Both the position numbers and the translations under genes were made by a program. Source: SAR92 clade bacterium H455 (lineage in GTDB: Bacteria; Pseudomonadota; Gammaproteobacteria; Pseudomonadales; Porticoccaceae). From it: a stretch of DNA of 64,000 bases. The notes beneath the pieces were generated by a model. It did not search any database, was not told the origin of the DNA, and saw only the letters and a program-made list of their open reading frames with translations. Position 1 is the stretch's first letter. Each line of letters starts with the position of its first letter. The stretch lies in NCBI GenBank assembly GCA_024802545.1, contig CP103416.1:2046001-2110000 (forward strand), in the 5' to 3' direction. Shown piece by piece: positions 1 through 6,401 of this stretch.

Positions 1-1049
1 ATCGTGAGCGAATACTCCAAGGCGGACAAACTATTGCCGCCTATATTGATATTGATAGGCTGAGAGATACGCTGCCGCTGATTATCTTTGATGAAATACA
101 CAAATACAGCCAGTGGAAATCGTTTATAAAAGGCTTTTATGACCGTTACCACACACAGTGCCGCATACTGGTTACAGGAAGCGCTAGGCTAGATGTGTTT
201 AAAAAAGGCGGAGACAGCCTAATGGGCCGGTATTTTTATTATCGCCTTCACCCGCTTTCAGTTAATGAGTTACTAAACCGCGCCCCCTCGGATACAGACA
301 TACAGAAACCCTTAAAAATTGCCGATACAAAATTCCTTAACCTGCTTAACTGGGGAGGATTCCCCGAACCCTACCTTAAACAAGAGCAGCGTTTTTATAA
401 TCGCTGGACCCGTCTACGAAAGCAGCAACTATTACGAGAAGATATTCGCGAACTCAGCAATATTCAAGAGTTAGGGCAATTAGAACTACTGGCAACCCTA
501 CTACAACATCAGGCCGGAGAGCTCACCAGCTACTCGACTCTAGCCAAAAAAACCAGAGTGTCTGTCGACACTATCCGCCGCTGGATAGTAACCTTGGAAT
601 CTCTTTACTACTGCTTTTCTATTAGACCTTGGACTAAAAACATCACCCGTTCATTGCTCAAAGAGCCCAAATACTATCTATGGGACTGGTCACAATGCAC
701 CGATAAAGGCGCACGCAATGAAAACTTTATCGCTTCACATTTGCTTAAGGCCGTGCATTATTGGACCGATCAAGGTCTGGGCGAATACGAACTCTACTTC
801 CTGCGGGATAAAGATAAACGTGAAGTTGACTTTCTTGTGAGTAAAAACCAAAAACCTTGGTTTATGGTAGAAGTAAAGTCATCGATCAAAGAAAAGCTTT
901 CACCGACTCTCGCCGTCTTTCAAAAACAACTTTTATTAAAACATGTATTTCAAGTTGCAATGGATGGCGACTACGTAGACCAAGATATCTTCACGTTGGA
1001 CAAACCGACGATTGTGCCTGCAAAGACGTTTTTGTCTCAATTGGTTTAA
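1..1049 (+). CDS. AAA ATPase with DUF4143 domain, 5' truncated by window edge
   Basis: The reading frame is open from base 3 to the stop at 1047-1049, so the gene starts outside the window and the first in-frame ATG (195) is internal. The part before that ATG carries a Walker-B-like strand LIIFDEIHKY followed by ILVTGSARLDVFKKGGDSL (sensor-like), then RYFYYRLHPLSVNEL. That order is typical of the predicted ATPases that pair an AAA_14-type domain with a C-terminal DUF4143 domain. The C-terminal part has YYLWDWSQ, GARNENFIASHLL and REVDFLV...PWFMVEVKSS, the restriction-endonuclease-like end of DUF4143. The Walker A motif lies off the window. The role of this family is not well established; members are common in genomic islands. 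It points toward the cassette array and is not part of it. Confidence 0.85.
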   Translation, partial: RERILQGGQTIAAYIDIDRLRDTLPLIIFDEIHKYSQWKSFIKGFYDRYHTQCRILVTGSARLDVFKKGGDSLMGRYFYYRLHPLSVNELLNRAPSDTDIQKPLKIADTKFLNLLNWGGFPEPYLKQEQRFYNRWTRLRKQQLLREDIRELSNIQELGQLELLATLLQHQAGELTSYSTLAKKTRVSVDTIRRWIVTLESLYYCFSIRPWTKNITRSLLKEPKYYLWDWSQCTDKGARNENFIASHLLKAVHYWTDQGLGEYELYFLRDKDKREVDFLVSKNQKPWFMVEVKSSIKEKLSPTLAVFQKQLLLKHVFQVAMDGDYVDQDIFTLDKPTIVPAKTFLSQLV

Positions 1050-1050
1050 G

Positions 1051-1158
1051 CTAGAAACATCCTTCAACACTGTACAAGGTCATGTCGTCGATCGCGTATC
1101 GAGAAGGCAAGTCCGTCAGCGGATGTAAAGCGTTCGAGCCAAGTGGTTTCCCGTTCAT
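1051..1158 (-). CDS. Possible 35-residue ORF fragment with strong RBS
   Basis: ATG at 1158 is preceded on the minus strand by AAGGAGA with a 6-base gap. The frame runs 35 codons (MNGKPLGSNALHPLTDLP...) to a TAG ending at 1051, two bases from the stop of the ATPase gene. I do not recognise the peptide. The good ribosome-binding site with a very short product suggests the 5' end of a gene cut off when the neighbouring DNA rearranged. It could also be a real small peptide. Confidence 0.25.
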   Translation of the reverse strand: MNGKPLGSNALHPLTDLPSRYAIDDMTLYSVEGCF

Positions 1159-1261
1159 GCGCGTTCTCCTTAAAGCCTGTATTTTCCCTTAAAAACAAGG
1201 CCTTTAAGCCCTAAATAAGCGCATTTACAAGGCGTTATCATCTATATTTCAATCACTTACG

Positions 1262-1327
1262 CAGGTCCGACCCCGTTCATCGTTCATCGTCCGCAAAAAA
1301 GAAGACAGTTTACGGAGGTCAGATTTG
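1262..1327. repeat. REP-like imperfect inverted repeat
   Basis: CAGGTCCGACCCC (1262-1274) and GGAGGTCAGATTTG (1314-1327) form imperfect inverted arms around about 40 bases that include a doubled CGTTCAT. GGGGTCGGACCTG-type sequences recur between genes in many gammaproteobacteria as REP-like elements. It abuts the first half of an integron attC site and appears to replace the rest of it. Confidence 0.35.
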
Positions 1328-1328
1328 C

Positions 1329-1341
1329 TGGCCTTGTTAGG
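1329..1341 (-). other. Partial integron attC site (R''/L'' half only)
   Basis: On the minus strand the sequence reads GCCTAACAAGGCC, the same R''-L'' start as the complete attC at 2130-2201. The TAA is also the stop codon of the PLD-like gene, as is common in cassettes. The complementary L'-R' half (GCG/TTAGGC) is missing; a REP-like sequence follows instead. This marks a damaged downstream end of the cassette array. Confidence 0.55.
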
Positions 1342-2107
1342 CACTGTGCTCTACCTCTTTGGATTTAGACCAAATCTGTTGGTATATTTCCTTTTTTGCC
1401 AATGCTAGGGGTGTTTGCAATGGGATTAGATATGTAGCTTTTTTACCAGCATCTTTTATGGAACCACCCATTATCCACGCCACGTCTTGGTCTATAAATA
1501 TAATTCTATCGTGTAATTCTTTACTGCGCCTCAACTCTATGCCGGTACCGTATTGCGTTTTATGTTTCTCAGCATAGTTACTTATATCTTTCGAATAGCG
1601 GTCGGCAAGAATCTTTATATCTAGCTCTGGATTGGCAGATGAGAGATATGCATCAAACGCTTCACCATTAAAATATGGATCTACAATCATTACTTCAAAT
1701 TCTGCTGAATTTATAACATCTTTCAGATCTGCAAAGAATCTATAGACATCACCGGGCGCGTAAGCACTGCCTATATCAGATCTATCCTCGAGTTCGAGCT
1801 CTAACTTAATTTCCTCGATTGCATCTAGGACTTGGCCCTGAATTTGGACAATTGCGTACGGCCAATATTGAACAAGAGTAGTGAATGAAGATTTGAAATT
1901 CACCTTTTTATCAATACCAAGACGAGACAGAAGTGCCCCGACTTTCGATAACCACTGACGCTGTGGAGATGAAGTATCCATTACAGCTTTATCACCAAAC
2001 TCGGGCGCACTCTCCAAAGCTTCGGTTAGCTTAAGAAGCAAAATATGCTTTTCAATAGGCCCGTCGCCTTCTAGCCTTTTCATCATTCTTTGAATTTGAT
2101 CAGTCAT
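1337..2107 (-). CDS. Cassette-borne PLD-like (HxR variant) protein
   Basis: The product is 256 residues. The N-terminal half (about 1-130) is helical and unrecognised. The C-terminal half resembles a single phospholipase D/nuclease-type domain: VMIVDPYFNGEAFDAYL (139-155), then ELHDRIIFIDQDVAWIMGGS, giving H199-x-R201-x4-D206 with a following GGS. Classic PLD motifs are HxK(x4)D, so Lys is replaced by Arg here. A single motif would require dimerisation for catalysis. The gene begins 22 bases after an attC crossover point and its stop codon lies in the next attC half-site, so it forms one integron cassette. PLD-like domains of this kind occur in bacterial defence genes, but a defence role is inference. 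Confidence 0.7.
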   Translation of the reverse strand: MTDQIQRMMKRLEGDGPIEKHILLLKLTEALESAPEFGDKAVMDTSSPQRQWLSKVGALLSRLGIDKKVNFKSSFTTLVQYWPYAIVQIQGQVLDAIEEIKLELELEDRSDIGSAYAPGDVYRFFADLKDVINSAEFEVMIVDPYFNGEAFDAYLSSANPELDIKILADRYSKDISNYAEKHKTQYGTGIELRRSKELHDRIIFIDQDVAWIMGGSIKDAGKKATYLIPLQTPLALAKKEIYQQIWSKSKEVEHSA

Positions 2108-2129
2108 ATAGTGCCTGAATAATGTGTGA

Positions 2130-2201
2130 GCCTAACGCCGCGCTCTGCGGAAATTTTGAAGCGTAGCGTAAAAATTGTCCGACAGCAGCGCCTTGTTAGG
2201 C
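2130..2201 (-). other. Integron attC recombination site (complete)
   Basis: Read on the minus strand, the site opens with GCCTAACAAGGCG (R'' RYYYAAC box) and closes with GGCGTTAGGC (R' GTTRRRY box), spanning 72 bases with internal imperfect complementarity. The centre holds TTTTTACGCTACGCTTC, shared in part with the attC at 3455-3524. It lies directly after the HEPN gene stop (2202) and before the PLD-like gene, the position expected for the 3' attC of the DUF5343-HEPN cassette. Confidence 0.85.
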
Positions 2202-2786
2202 CTAAGCCCCAACTTGCTTGACCCAATCTCTAATATTTACCCCAAGCCGCTCAATGTCTTCTCGTTCGAGGCTGCCACTATGCATAATCACATTTCTAGA
2301 ACGCTCAATAACTTCGAAGATTCCTGATGCCCACGCTAAATTTCCGATGAGGTCTTCGAATGCATCCCAGTTGTTTTGCATTATATTTTTAAGGTCGCCG
2401 AAGGTCGTATAATTTATTGCATCTTGGCCTCGTTGTGCATGCCACTTAGCATTCTGTTCATCCTCCATTCGTTTTTGAGCTCGGTCTCTTACTCCGTTTG
2501 ATGCACCTTTCTCCCACCATTCTTCTTTGTATTTTTCAACAAGTGTCTTCGTAACTAGAGAACGAACACTACTTTCAAATGCGGCAATAGCTGTATATAC
2601 GACAGACATAGATTTTGCATTTGCGACATGAATGTCGTCTAAAGAATCTAGAGCAAGACTGCTGGCAATATCATCGTCGGCCAAATCAATCATATGCTTA
2701 TTTTTGCGGCCGCTTCTATCTAAAGCTTCTTCAGCTAACAAGCCCCTAAATGCAAACTCATATAATTTGGAATCTAAATTGCTCAT
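2202..2786 (-). CDS. Swt1-type HEPN domain protein, putative RNase
   Basis: The product is 194 residues and mostly helical. Near the C-terminus, IERSRNVIMHSGSLEREDIERLG contains R164-N165-x3-H169. This is the RNxxxH signature of HEPN ribonuclease domains, in the sequence context I associate with the Swt1-like HEPN group. HEPN proteins of this sort commonly cut RNA and act in toxin-antitoxin, abortive-infection or other defence systems. The start overlaps the end of the DUF5343 gene by 4 bases (ATGA), so the two are probably translated together, and both lie in one integron cassette. The biochemical activity is inferred from the motif only. Confidence 0.75.
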   Translation of the reverse strand: MSNLDSKLYEFAFRGLLAEEALDRSGRKNKHMIDLADDDIASSLALDSLDDIHVANAKSMSVVYTAIAAFESSVRSLVTKTLVEKYKEEWWEKGASNGVRDRAQKRMEDEQNAKWHAQRGQDAINYTTFGDLKNIMQNNWDAFEDLIGNLAWASGIFEVIERSRNVIMHSGSLEREDIERLGVNIRDWVKQVGA

Positions 2787-3433
2787 GACAAGTGTTTCTT
2801 CATAGATTCAAACAACGCGTCATATACTTTTGGATCTCTCGATTCAGGAAGAATTAGCTGAATGTTGTAGACTAGTCCGCCAATCGACAATCCCTTTTTA
2901 GGATCATTCCCTTTATTGCCAGCGCTTTCTTCGCCCGCATTTTTATCGTCAGAATTTTCTTCCTGATCAGTATCATTTGATTGTGACTCGCTTTTTGCGG
3001 GAGAGGCCGATGAAAAATCAGCGAGAGCACATAACGAAGTGAAAGTTGTACCCATTTTTCCCAATACTGATTCGGAGTACTGACCTTGACTCAAGGTTTT
3101 GAATTTATTTACTACATCAGCCTTTGACATGGCATGAGCGTTCTTATTAACCTGAAATAGATCTGTATAGGCCTCGTGAATTGCTTCGGCCAAAACGGCT
3201 GTCGATTGTGTTTGGTCAAGATATTCATAGTATCTTTTTGTAGGTCGGCCATCATCTTCGAGAAACTTTAATGATTTTAGCAAGCCAATGACGAGTCGAT
3301 CAGCGCTACCTTTATAGTCCAAAGACTCAAGAAATCTTGTTGTAAATTTCTCTGGTGCTTGAGCTCCTACAATTGAATTGAGAATCCCTGCCAGGTTTTT
3401 CGACGATGTTAAATATGATGATGGTAATGCCAT
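2783..3433 (-). CDS. DUF5343 domain protein
   Basis: The product is 216 residues. The N-terminal ~130 residues (LPSSYLTSSKNLAGILNSIV...FTTRFLESLDYKGSADRLVIGLLKSLKFLEDDGRPTKRYYEYLD) match what I recall of DUF5343, a predicted winged-helix-like domain of unknown function. A charged low-complexity linker (about 145-180, rich in S, D, E, N, K) leads to a short C-terminal segment LSIGGLVYNIQLILPESRDPKVYDALFESMKKHL. A strong RBS (AAGGAGA) precedes the ATG. It is the first gene of a two-gene cassette and overlaps the HEPN gene by 4 bases. It may be the sensor, regulator or antitoxin of the pair; that is inference. Confidence 0.75.
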   Translation of the reverse strand: MALPSSYLTSSKNLAGILNSIVGAQAPEKFTTRFLESLDYKGSADRLVIGLLKSLKFLEDDGRPTKRYYEYLDQTQSTAVLAEAIHEAYTDLFQVNKNAHAMSKADVVNKFKTLSQGQYSESVLGKMGTTFTSLCALADFSSASPAKSESQSNDTDQEENSDDKNAGEESAGNKGNDPKKGLSIGGLVYNIQLILPESRDPKVYDALFESMKKHLS

Positions 3434-3454
3434 TTATCTCTCCTTGTTGTGATT

Positions 3455-3524
3455 GCCTAACGCCGCCATAATTTGCCGCTTGGAGCGTAGCGTAAAGCGG
3501 TCAAATTGATGGCTTTGTTATGGC
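3455..3524 (-). other. Integron attC recombination site (complete)
   Basis: The minus strand reads GCCATAACAAAGCC ... GGCGGCGTTAGGC. The inner stem pairs CCAT-AATTTG-CCGCTT with AAGCGG-CAAATT-ATGG, with single unpaired bases in the arms. Those extrahelical bases are the hallmark of attC sites folded for integrase. The loop contains TACGCTACGCTCC. The R'' box CCATAAC is complementary to the TTATGGC found at the start of the alpha/alpha-toroid cassette (4490-4484), as expected if both came from one circular cassette. Confidence 0.88.
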
Positions 3525-3558
3525 GGGCACTCTGCGCTCCGCCACAATATTGCACCAC

Positions 3559-4464
3559 TCACAACACTTCAATTCGGTCATAGTCTTTGAGGGTTTTTAG
3601 TGCATTGATGGTATACATGCCATCCCAATGCATTCCGGGATTTAAGTAATTAGGATAGCCATAGCCAGTGGCCCAAGCGCCGGTTTCATCTTGCCGACTT
3701 ATCAGGGCATCTAAACTCGCATTAATCTGTTCATCGCTAAATGCGGGTCGCAAAGCGCTATCTGGATGATTTGCGTAACAGGTGGGTGTTGGATGTAGAT
3801 ATAAGCCTGCCTCCGGATGGCTTACATTAAAACACGTAAAGTTTTTGGACGAAATCCAGGAGCGGAGGCTGGTAATTGCCCTCTCTGCTAACAAAGAGTT
3901 TGATGTGTTCTCCAGAAAAAATAATCTCTGGTGCATACATTGCGCACACTGGACATGCTCATCTTGTTGCTCTTTGATACTCTCCCATACAAACTTACTA
4001 GCTTTATTGGTCCATTCATTGTGGATTCCATATTTCTCACATAATCCTACAATAGGGGCAGTGATCGTAATAACAGACCTATGCATCGGCTTGTCGAAAT
4101 GATTTGCTCTTGGGTATTCCCTGTTAGGTTTTAACATCCAAGGAAGGCCCCCATCATCAAATGTCAGTGGCAGCAGAAAGCCCAGTGACTGCTTAATTGT
4201 TTCAACATCTAGACGCTGGGCACGATCCAGCCAGAGTAGGGCCATCACTGTAAACAAGGGCTGACTTTCAGGAGACGCTGTATCCGGTTCCAGTCCCCAG
4301 CCAAATCCACCGTCATCGTTCTGATAGGCTAATATTGAGTGGAATACTCCAGATGACGATCCAGATTCAAAGTAATAATCAAATAGGCGTTTTTCCAATA
4401 TTCTCCCTTCAGCTAGCAAATAGTTTCTAGCCTTGATAAATGCATCATTAGTTAATTTGATCAT
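3559..4464 (-). CDS. Cassette-borne prenyltransferase/squalene-cyclase-like toroid protein
   Basis: From the ATG at 4464 the product is 301 residues. A longer start at 4488 (MATIES...) is in frame but lies inside the cassette recombination box, so the internal ATG is preferred, although its RBS is weak. Repeats such as HSILAYQNDDGGFGWGLEPDT near the N-terminus and LISRQDETGAWATGYGYPNY...WDGMYTINALKTL at the C-terminus match the QW-like motifs of alpha/alpha-toroid proteins (prenyltransferase and squalene-oxidase repeats). No DxDD or other cyclase active-site motif is obvious. There is no signal peptide. The substrate cannot be named from the sequence. Confidence 0.65.
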   Translation of the reverse strand: MIKLTNDAFIKARNYLLAEGRILEKRLFDYYFESGSSSGVFHSILAYQNDDGGFGWGLEPDTASPESQPLFTVMALLWLDRAQRLDVETIKQSLGFLLPLTFDDGGLPWMLKPNREYPRANHFDKPMHRSVITITAPIVGLCEKYGIHNEWTNKASKFVWESIKEQQDEHVQCAQCMHQRLFFLENTSNSLLAERAITSLRSWISSKNFTCFNVSHPEAGLYLHPTPTCYANHPDSALRPAFSDEQINASLDALISRQDETGAWATGYGYPNYLNPGMHWDGMYTINALKTLKDYDRIEVL

Positions 4465-4483
4465 AATATTACTTTCTATTGTT

Positions 4484-4543
4484 GCCATAACAGCCTAATT
4501 ATGAGGCCTACCGGCCTCATAATTATTATTATCGGGGCGCCCT
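4484..4543 (-). other. Degenerate attC-like site with perfect hairpin
   Basis: A perfect 13-bp inverted repeat TAATTATGAGGCC / GGCCTCATAATTA (4496-4525, 4-base loop) sits immediately upstream of the cassette start. The minus strand continues AGGCTGTTATGGC, so GTTATGGC (4491-4484) serves as an R' box. Its crossover product TTATGGC matches the R'' of the cassette's own attC. The outer left box is unclear (GATAAT or GATAAC farther out), so this is either a short divergent attC or a secondary recombination site. Confidence 0.45.
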
Positions 4544-4613
4544 TGTAATATGTTATCAGGGGCATTTTGAGATTCTTTAACTGATTGATTCATATATGAA
4601 AAACACTCAGACC

Positions 4614-4646
4614 AAAGTGCCTGGCTTTATTATCGGGGCACTTTTT
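4614..4646 (+). terminator. Possible rho-independent terminator
   Basis: AAAGTGCC (4614-4621) pairs with GGCACTTT, followed by further T residues. The loop is long (15 bases) and holds TTATTATCGGGGC, a 13-base sequence also present at 4526-4538. There is no plus-strand gene just upstream, so it may be a relic. Confidence 0.35.
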
Positions 4647-4873
4647 CGAGGGCTGTCGATGATTTATAGAAATAAGCTGGGATACTGTTTTGTTACGCAG
4701 TATTTTGATAAGGGTGTTTCGTAATGTCGTCATCACCATTCCTTTGGTCTAAACGCAAATATATGATTCGTTAATCATTAACGAGGGTAGAACAATAAAT
4801 TAATACCTATTCTGTATCAACGTATTTTTACTTATTCCGTAGTAAGAGCCATCCCGACAGAGCCCAGCCAAAC

Positions 4874-5005
4874 CTGTCATCCCGACAGAGCGCAGCGACG
4901 AGGGATCTATTAATCGCGTTTACTGAGGGTCTGAGTGAGCTGATAGTAGATCTCTCACATTGGTTCGAGATGACAGGATTTTTATCGAGCGGAGCCGAAT
5001 GATCT
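4874..5005. repeat. Dispersed inverted-repeat element (copy 1), interrupted by the IS
   Basis: CTGTCATCCCGACAGAGC... (4874-4908) and TAGATCTCTCACATTGG...GATGACAG (4947-4976) are inverted versions of one sequence family. A further partial arm CGAGCGGAGCCGAATGATCT ends at 5005. A related element occurs at 22156-22227. The IS3-family element inserted into the final ATCT. The GATGACAG/GAGATCTCTCAC sequence resembles small intergenic inverted-repeat elements seen in many bacteria; no coding capacity is visible. Confidence 0.5.
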
Positions 5006-5047
5006 TGTAATCCCCCCATTTCCCACTGGAGCAATAAGTAGAAACTG

Positions 5048-5872
5048 TTAGGCCGCGCACAGTAGCTGTCGCGGCGGGATACCGCCAATGGCCGTATGTG
5101 GCCGGTCGTTATTATATCGCCACAACCATTTTGTCGCCAACCACTGTGCATGCTCTATTGTTTCGAACAGGTGCATATCAAGCCACTCATGTCTTGCCGT
5201 GCGATTGAATCGCTCAATGTAGGCGTTCTGAGTGGGCTTTCCAGGTTGTATAAATAGCAATGTGATGTGCTGTTTGCTCGCCCATTCAACGAGTTGATGA
5301 CTGATATATTCAGGTCCATTATCACAGCGGATAGCAGAGGGTTTACCTCTCCATTCAATGATCTGATCCAAGCTGCGGATCACCCTTACACTGGGTAATG
5401 AAAAGTCTACTTCGATACCTAGTGCTTCTCGATTGTAGTCATCTAGCACATTAAACGTACGGATCGACCTGCCATCGGACAATGAATCGCTCATAAAATC
5501 CATCGACCATGTTTGGTTTATCGCTGTCGTATTGCCTAGGGCCTCAGGCTTGTCTCGCTTGAGCCTACGCCGCGGCTTAATACGGAGGTTTAGCTCAAGC
5601 TCGCGATAAATACGATAGACACGCTTGTGGTTCCAGCTAAACCCCTTGATATTACGTAAATACAAAAAGCATAAGCCGAATCCCCAACGTTTGTTTGCGG
5701 TGGTTATACGAAGCAGCCAGTCGGCTATCTCCAGGTTCTCCGTGGAGAGTTTGGGCTGATATCGATAGCAGCTTTCACTGATGCCAAAGGTTCGACATAT
5801 CACGCGAATACTCGTCTTGTACTGCAGCAAGGCGGTCGAGGCCATCTCGCGTCGGAAAGATGGCTTTACCAC
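5048..5872 (-). CDS. IS3-family transposase OrfB (DDE integrase domain)
   Basis: The product is 274 residues. An N-terminal HTH_21-like region (about 40-95) precedes an rve integrase core with WSMDFMSD (first D), IRCDNGPEY (second D) and QNAYIERFNR (E), the DDE catalytic triad. The C-terminus RYNNDRPHTAIGGIPPRQLL is characteristic of the family. The apparent start is a GTG lying inside the frameshift signal AAAAAAG at 5878-5872. The active protein is therefore probably the OrfAB fusion made by -1 frameshifting, and free OrfB may not be made. Confidence 0.92.
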   Translation of the reverse strand: MVKPSFRREMASTALLQYKTSIRVICRTFGISESCYRYQPKLSTENLEIADWLLRITTANKRWGFGLCFLYLRNIKGFSWNHKRVYRIYRELELNLRIKPRRRLKRDKPEALGNTTAINQTWSMDFMSDSLSDGRSIRTFNVLDDYNREALGIEVDFSLPSVRVIRSLDQIIEWRGKPSAIRCDNGPEYISHQLVEWASKQHITLLFIQPGKPTQNAYIERFNRTARHEWLDMHLFETIEHAQWLATKWLWRYNNDRPHTAIGGIPPRQLLCAA

Positions 5873-6132
5873 TTTTTTGCCAGCGCCTCGCGGGCGATCT
5901 CGCCGACTAGCTTCTCCTCGGCATACATCTTTTTGAGCCGTCGATTCTCGTCTTCCAGCTCTTTCATGCGCTTAATCATTGACGTGTCCATGCCACCAAA
6001 CTTTGAGCGCCATTTGTAGAACTGAGCTTGGCTTAGGCCGTGCTCTCGGCACAGATCCGCAACTGCTATGCCATTTTCGTTCTGTTTCAGCATCGCCATG
6101 ATTTGGCTGTCTGTAAATTTTGATTTTCTCAT
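5866..6132 (-). CDS. IS3-family transposase OrfA (HTH and leucine zipper)
   Basis: The product is 88 residues. It starts MRKSKFTDSQIMAMLKQNE, with a HTH_Tnp_1 domain (DLCREHGLSQAQFYKWRSKFGG) and then a coiled-coil segment MKELEDENRRLKKMYAEEKL. An RBS AGGAG precedes the ATG. The last codons GCA AAA AAG TGG TAA contain the A-AAA-AAG slippery heptamer. A -1 shift there gives VVKPSF..., the start of OrfB. OrfA binds the terminal inverted repeats and contributes to the OrfAB transposase. Confidence 0.92.
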   Translation of the reverse strand: MRKSKFTDSQIMAMLKQNENGIAVADLCREHGLSQAQFYKWRSKFGGMDTSMIKRMKELEDENRRLKKMYAEEKLVGEIAREALAKKW

Positions 6133-6401
6133 AAAAAACTCCTCTCTATATCTTAGTGGAATTTTCTACTTTTGCCGCCTTTGGTTTATTGGGGGGATTA
6201 CAATCTCCTGCAAACCCACTGTGACTAATTGATAACCTAAAGACGCTAACAGCAGCTCTATTCAGCTGCTGGTTACAAAATAAGCGATACGCCCCCAATT
6301 AAAATGGGCGGAGTTAAACCTATGCACGGTGGTTGGCTCTGCTTTGGCCTACAATTAATGCAGTTGAATCCGCAGCAATTTATTACAAAGGAATGTTGGC
6401 T

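What the first reader, a model, noticed from the sequence alone, without database searches (positions are those of the whole stretch)
1329..4543. Integron cassette array without a visible integrase
Seen: two full attC sites (2130-2201 and 3455-3524), a half site (1329-1341) and a degenerate site (4484-4543) bracket three co-oriented units. Each cassette starts with the TTRRRY-type end that matches its own attC R'' box (TTATGGC/CCATAAC for the toroid cassette, TTAGGC/GCCTAAC for the other two), which is what site-specific cassette insertion predicts. Established: such clusters lacking intI are called CALINs. Inference: this is a remnant or remote part of a chromosomal integron.
Basis: partly seen in the sequence, partly recalled or inferred. 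Interest (0 to 1): 0.72.

Follow-up and report, generated by a model that had tools for sequence, protein, structure and literature searches.

The report
Integron array with a dead integrase
A bacterial chromosome carries three captured gene cassettes, two of them resembling candidate phage-defence genes, still sitting at their integron landing site although the enzyme that captured them has decayed to a short stub; this is a known kind of fossil whose landing site shows some unusual features.

Summary
A covariance model of attC, built from 15 relatives' sites with the window held out, finds both full sites (48.9 and 41.8 bits), the two best hits of a non-exhaustive own-genome scan. The "half site" is the first ~53 bases of a ~105-base attC, cut by a repeat. 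The "degenerate site" is not an attC: window 4472-4857 aligns with attI and the 5' end of intI of congeners. So the array sits at its own attI beside an intI reduced to a 16-codon frame. It is a decayed chromosomal integron, not a remote piece of one. A second intI fragment lies about 78 kb away; attC sites occur in two other places. The middle cassette is PDC-M34A+B, the last PDC-S05-like (PADLOC candidate defence). A congener has the same broken intI at the same locus but a different gene at attI, with uneven attI similarity that suggests exchange. attI carries a hairpin seen in relatives. New member of a known kind.

The parts
1161..1280 (.). end of a dispersed repeat, probably of a REP-associated (Y1) transposase element, which cuts off the array's far end
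   Evidence: blastn matches in G018 (L055, 76%), G032, G033 and at the same locus in G043; in L055 beside a 189-aa transposase-like ORF (family name by inspection and recall, not from a profile search)
1290..1342 (-). truncated attC of the third cassette (R'', L'' and ascending stem only)
   Evidence: 57 bp at 89% to the full attC at own genome 662 kb, 47 bp at 96% in G112
1337..2107 (-). third cassette gene, PLD-nuclease-like, 256 aa
   Evidence: PDC-S05 1e-18 over residues 92-232; VPA1262_N 3.8e-13, below its cut-off; PLDc_2 4.5e-5, below its cut-off
2130..2201 (-). attC of the M34 cassette
   Evidence: R1 48.9 bits, E 5.4e-10; fold
2202..2786 (-). M34 cassette second gene, HEPN_Swt1 domain, PDC-M34B
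   Evidence: PADLOC 5.2e-74; Pfam HEPN_Swt1 1.3e-11
2783..3433 (-). M34 cassette first gene, DUF5343, PDC-M34A; overlaps the next gene by 4 bp
   Evidence: PADLOC 2.3e-76; Pfam DUF5343 3.1e-42
3455..3524 (-). attC of the toroid cassette
   Evidence: R1 41.8 bits, E 3.3e-8; fold
   Evidence: no Pfam, NCBIfam or PADLOC match at E<=0.1 and no PDB match at E<=1; relatives at 24.5-29.5% over most of the length in 7 plasmid-collection records
4484..4491 (-). attI/cassette junction, core GTTATGGC on the minus strand, crossover after the G
   Evidence: sequence; homology with G043 ends within 4 bases of it
4492..4723 (.). attI and intI upstream region; hairpin at 4496-4525
   Evidence: blastn to six congeners, two of which (G059, G039) match only from beyond the hairpin; hairpin unique in the own genome and found at attI in 4 of 50 genus genomes
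4724..4857 (+). 5' stub of intI: ATG at 4724, stop after 16 codons, homology to about 4857
   Evidence: translation MSSSPFLWSKRKYMIR*; alignment with intact intI of G057
4858..4990 (.). dispersed repeat that replaces the rest of intI; same junction in G043
   Evidence: own-genome and congener copies of its start; alignment
5005..6203 (-). IS3-family element inserted beside the stub, absent from G043
   Evidence: transposase ORFs 5048-5872 and 5866-6132 (IS3 label recalled); terminal inverted repeats; ATCT on both sides, read by eye; gap in the G043 alignment

Best explanation
This is a chromosomal integron at an attI platform that has lost its integrase. An IntI-type integrase inserted circular cassettes at attI (crossover at 4491). 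The cassettes are toroid gene, then PDC-M34A+B, then PLD-like gene, all read on the minus strand away from attI. intI is cut to about 130 bp by a junction with a dispersed repeat (shown). The far end of the array is cut inside the third attC by a REP/transposase-type repeat (shown). An IS3-family element sits beside the stub (shown). The cassettes can no longer be moved in cis (inferred). They remain open reading frames and could be expressed from a promoter in the attI/stub region (inferred). The M34 and PLD-like genes most likely act in phage defence (inferred from PADLOC candidate families).
For: attC sites by a held-out covariance model. Homology of 4472-4857 to attI-intI of G057 and, over parts of it, G013, G037, G059, G039 and G018. 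intI stub reading frame. Intact intI in G057, 438.9 bits, with seven attC beside it (five of the seven were in the model). No full intI found in the own genome (6 of 6 candidates scored). Same locus with the same stub in G043, and the locus without the array in G013 and G012. PADLOC hits. M34A relatives in 6 of 368 other gammaproteobacterial genomes, 2 of those 6 with an attC directly upstream.
Against: No recombination or expression was measured. The Pc promoter is unproven: 4 promoter-like sites against a shuffled mean of 1.8, sd 1.3. PDC families are predictions, and the paper searches for PDC-M34 and DUF5343 listed 0 papers each. The toroid gene has no assigned function. Nothing shows that this platform's own integrase, rather than another route, brought in the present cassettes. 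The own-genome attC search scored 150 of 418 candidates and is known to have missed two sites.
Confidence: 0.92

Rival explanations
1. A refinement rather than an exclusion: the cassette block was swapped into an already dead platform by homologous recombination through attI, rather than captured by this platform's own integrase.
For: G000 and G043 share the broken intI and its junction: over 4724-4857, of 133 compared sites 20 are shared by G000 and G043 against G057 and G013, 5 set G043 alone apart. In 4494-4600 (95 sites) G000 agrees with G057 and the G013 pnp-locus integron against G043 at 18 sites and with G043 against them at 2. G000-G043 identity by segment from the cassette edge: 0.71, 0.73, 0.69, then 0.94, 0.93, then 0.78; the sthA flank is 0.86. 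The first gene at attI differs in G043.
Against: The pattern is not a clean two-part mosaic: identity falls again to 0.78 over 4791-4857, the middle stretch 4601-4723 is undecided (15 sites against 13), and G000 stands alone at 11 sites of the stub. Fast decay of the G043 attI after integrase loss could give the same picture (its crossover G is changed). Only one other genome keeps the platform at this locus.
Confidence: 0.4
2. A refinement rather than an exclusion: a trans-acting integrase from another integron of the same cell exchanged the cassettes after the local intI died.
For: Different first genes beside the same dead stub in G000 and G043, with homology ending at the crossover. A second intI fragment and further attC clusters show that the lineage had more than one integron. 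Mobilisation of CALINs in trans is stated in PMC12444791 (passage).
Against: In the genus only G057 has intI above the cut-off; no genome with both the dead platform and a live intI was seen in the nearest relatives. The uneven attI similarity favours homologous recombination.
Confidence: 0.3
3. A remote CALIN made by scattered insertion at non-attI sites.
For: Attractive if only the attC sites are seen; a second intI fragment lies about 78 kb from the array.
Against: attI and the intI 5' end are directly adjacent and have congener homologues; the distant fragment has its own attC and cassette ORF and its surroundings gave no DNA match at E<=1e-3 to these loci.
Confidence: 0.03
4. Ordinary REP repeats or terminators mistaken for attC.
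For: The sites are palindromic and a dispersed repeat lies at the left edge.
Against: Held-out model scores and covariation; the hairpin at 4496-4525 occurs once in the genome.
Confidence: 0.01

Closest known systems
[quoted passage not shown] IntegronFinder usage, PMC9024848, passages seen)
   Same: Two full attC sites, no functional intI, small array; proposed there as degraded integrons
   Different: attI and an intI 5' stub are still present, so the origin is directly visible
Xanthomonas ilvD-locus integrons with truncated intI (PMC12444791, section 11 and passages seen)
   Same: Ancestral chromosomal platform, repeated intI inactivation, leftover arrays; there too species without any full-length intI (X. 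cissicola, X. phaseoli) hold many cassette genes seen in one isolate only
   Different: Its introduction reports from earlier work that strains with the same intI lesions usually had identical arrays; here two species share the lesion at one locus but hold different genes at attI
Defence-carrying integrons of Vibrio (Darracq 2025, Getz 2025, as described in passages of PMC12409362)
   Same: Cassettes with defence-like genes
   Different: Tiny array with dead integrase; defence role only predicted
Delta-attI-type cassettes of mobile integrons (PMC12901181, abstract and passages seen)
   Same: The G057 array has a second copy of the attI hairpin and core at a boundary between two cassettes
   Different: Chromosomal integron; not tested for recombination

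Membership tests
CALIN | at least two attC sites clustered | tested here: met
   2 sites 1.25 kb apart, plus a truncated third
CALIN | no integron integrase nearby | tested here: met
   only a fragment of 73 matched positions about 78 kb away; adjacent stub of 16 codons
complete integron | full-length intI with attI and attC | tested here: not met
   attI and attC present, intI truncated
integron (general): attC architecture | R''/R' and L''/L' pairing with an extrahelical base | tested here: met
integron (general): cassette boundary rule | cassette start complements its own R'' box | tested here: met
   TTATGGC with GCCATAAC; TTAGGC with GCCTAAC twice, read by eye
integron (general): recombination | cassettes are cut and joined by IntI | not testable with these tools
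   no experiment
sedentary chromosomal integron, large | long array with homogeneous attC sites | tested here: not met
   three cassettes; the two full sites and the truncated site differ in type (by eye)
PDC-M34 candidate defence system | adjacent A and B proteins of the PADLOC models | tested here: met
   2.3e-76 and 5.2e-74
PDC-M34 candidate defence system | protects against phage | not testable with these tools
   no experiment; 0 papers listed

The most novel reading that the evidence does not exclude
In this lineage attI is itself a palindromic site. A hairpin whose sequence varies but whose pairing is kept ends roughly 5 to 11 nt before the crossover, and it takes part in recombination or in control of the first cassette. 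Platforms with a dead integrase can go on exchanging cassettes because blocks are swapped through the conserved attI by homologous recombination or by an integrase in trans.
Probability: 0.3. Interest if true: 0.6.

Novelty: new member of a known kind. Interest (0 to 1): 0.42.

Why it matters
It shows how a CALIN can arise: the landing site and the stump of the integrase are still readable beside the array, and a sister species has the same stump with a different gene at attI. If cassette turnover continues after integrase death, CALINs are not frozen fossils. A conserved attI hairpin would give a new handle on attI, whose sites are called non-palindromic in the title of Hansson 1997 (title seen only in a reference list).

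Tried and rejected
Rfam found nothing in the window, and I know of no attC family there (recalled). A strict RYYYAAC...GTTRRRY scan missed the 3455 site because its R'' box is CCATAAC. For M34A the genome-contig scan gave one archaeal relative, without an attC by R1; plasmids and viral contigs gave none. Phages gave none for the toroid protein. The single-sequence fold of the toroid protein was poor (mean pLDDT 39.5), so no fold search was run and it is not used as evidence. PDB searches gave nothing for the toroid protein and only matches at E 0.8-1.0 for the PLD-like one. The pnp-linked own-genome array (660-663 kb) was considered as the source of the window array: it is orthologous in position to the G013 integron in L053 and has three attC, but the attI of L053 had no match there. 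The REP reading and the remote-CALIN reading were rejected as above. The organism was not identified.

Hairpins with arms of at least 8 bp ending 4-14 nt before GTTA occur in 8 of 35 (circular-shift mean 1.3, 0 of 1000 runs as high); nine control tetramers gave 0-4 loci. Four of the 8 are clearly related to each other, and one (L024) lies 548 bp from intI and may be a chance hit. With G^TTR as the core 10 of 35 had arms of at least 7 (mean of 60 Markov shuffles 0.9, maximum 4), with no sharp peak in distance. Seventeen of 35 loci have some hairpin with arms of at least 8 somewhere, so hairpins as such are common there, and most of the 35 loci show no such hairpin before GTTA. Of six family loci looked at, G062 and G094 showed none of at least 8 bp. 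The 8-row covariation test is small and borderline: 3 pairs changed on both sides, 8 of 500 shuffles as high; G057 and G013 were entered as one row.
Full report
The window is bases 2046001-2110000 of a single 2.96-Mb contig. Its first 6.2 kb hold four genes on the minus strand in three units, with two full attC sites between them.

Test of the sites. I picked attC sites from scans and by eye in loci of relatives, reached through intI, attI or flank matches, and built a covariance model from 15 of them, leaving the window out. The named pairing exceeds shuffles and slid controls in paired cells and covariation score, though not in the bare number of doubly changed pairs. The model then found the two window sites as the only matches at E<=10 in 64 kb and as the two best in the own genome. 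Further own-genome sites: 662044 (28.0 bits) and 1967941 (26.4 bits), a 16.2-bit match at 570572 that I take for background, and two more at about 660.8 and 661.6 kb (31.1 and 25.6 bits), which one search had not reported. So the genome holds at least six attC sites in three places, and the count is a lower bound.

Left end. The half site is the R'' half of a long attC of the same type as the one at 662 kb, and it ends where a dispersed repeat begins. That repeat lies beside a transposase-like ORF in G018.

Right end. Window 4472-4857 aligns at 79% with attI and the start of intI in congener G057, whose intI is intact (438.9 bits), and parts of it with five more congener loci. The window's intI frame reads MSSSPFLWSKRKYMIR and stops, against MSSSPFLWSIREYMLIRHYS in G057. 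Beyond 4857 comes a dispersed repeat and then an IS3-family element with 14-bp terminal inverted repeats and ATCT on both sides. In the family, 22 of 112 genomes have intI above the cut-off; in the genus only G057 does. The own genome has one other N-terminal piece of intI, 73 matched positions (47.8 bits), about 78 kb from the array, 34% identical to the G057 protein over 73 residues, with its own cassette ORF and attC.

Locus history. G013, the nearest relative by SthA (99%), has both flanks at 91-94% identity but lacks window 1118-6288, with 69 bp instead. G012 lacks the array too. G043 keeps the platform at the same place: the same stub and the same junction into the repeat, no IS3 element, and a different gene at attI, with no attC by the model. 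That gene is in two pieces, which I take for one broken gene; only the shorter piece has weak ATPase matches, below the cut-offs. Over the stub G000 and G043 share 20 changes against the other two, G043 stands alone at 5 sites and G000 at 11. Over 4494-4600 G000 instead agrees with G057 and the G013 pnp-locus integron, 18 sites against 2; 4601-4723 is undecided, 13 against 15. Identity by segment is 0.71, 0.73, 0.69, 0.94, 0.93 and 0.78. This is either homologous exchange through attI or fast decay of the G043 attI; I favour exchange slightly. In Xanthomonas, strains with the same intI lesions usually had identical arrays (earlier work cited in PMC12444791, passage), but the same paper also finds many single-isolate cassette genes in species without a full-length intI (section 11), so the contrast is not absolute.

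Cargo. PDC-M34A and B overlap by 4 bp and form one cassette. M34A relatives occur in 6 of 368 other gammaproteobacterial genomes (the copy in G287 has an internal stop and that in G174 is split). Model R1, run on the seven loci of these six genomes, found an attC directly upstream in G287 and G226. The third gene matches PDC-S05 over residues 92-232 of 256. The left neighbour outside the array, 195-1049, matches PDC-S01. The first gene had no match at E<=1e-5 in 368 other gammaproteobacterial genomes nor in 50,697 phage records. Eight of 72,556 plasmid records match, from genera I know as Gram-positive, 7 of them over at least 80% of its length at 24.5-29.5% identity; the eighth matches 21% of it. 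Defence-bearing integrons are known from Vibrio (PMC12409362, passages).

attI hairpin. A stem of 13 pairs (4496-4525) ends 5 nt from the crossover. It occurs once in the own genome and, with up to 3 mismatches, in 4 of 50 genus genomes, in each at attI; G057 has one extra copy, between two of its cassettes. G043 has a more diverged version. Some other genera have different stems near the crossover, others none. The enrichment and its limits are given under Tried and rejected. Two literature searches on attI with hairpin, stem-loop, inverted repeat or secondary structure listed 6 and 11 papers; of these I saw passages of one (PMC8876359), which did not describe such a hairpin. I do not claim it is absent from print.

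Verdict. Ordinary in kind; the shared dead integrase with different neighbours at attI, and the attI hairpin, are the parts worth following.

Noticed in passing
L056:427-2673 (own genome 660.4-662.7 kb): A second cassette array (glyoxalase-like, unknown, RpiB-like and GNAT genes; three attC) beside pnp, orthologous in place to a G013 integron that keeps attI and an intI stub.
   Followed up: partly
L008:1453-1752 and L008:499-613 (own genome about 1968-1969 kb): A third integron remnant: intI N-terminal fragment, one 168-aa cassette ORF and a 115-base attC; just past the intI fragment lie 3.2 tandem copies of a 234-bp repeat.
   Followed up: partly
L048:14365-14405: In congener G057 a second copy of the attI hairpin and core stands between two cassettes, as in delta-attI-type cassettes of mobile integrons.
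   Followed up: partly
L048:8060-8391: G057 carries a second, broken intI start behind its intact integron, similar to those of G059 and G039.
   Followed up: partly
L066:3071-3133: An attC in G132 is followed by sequence that looks like the start of a group II intron (by eye, no search).
   Followed up: no
window 195-1049: ATPase-type gene with DUF4143, PDC-S01-like; present at the same place in G013 but not in G043.
   Followed up: partly
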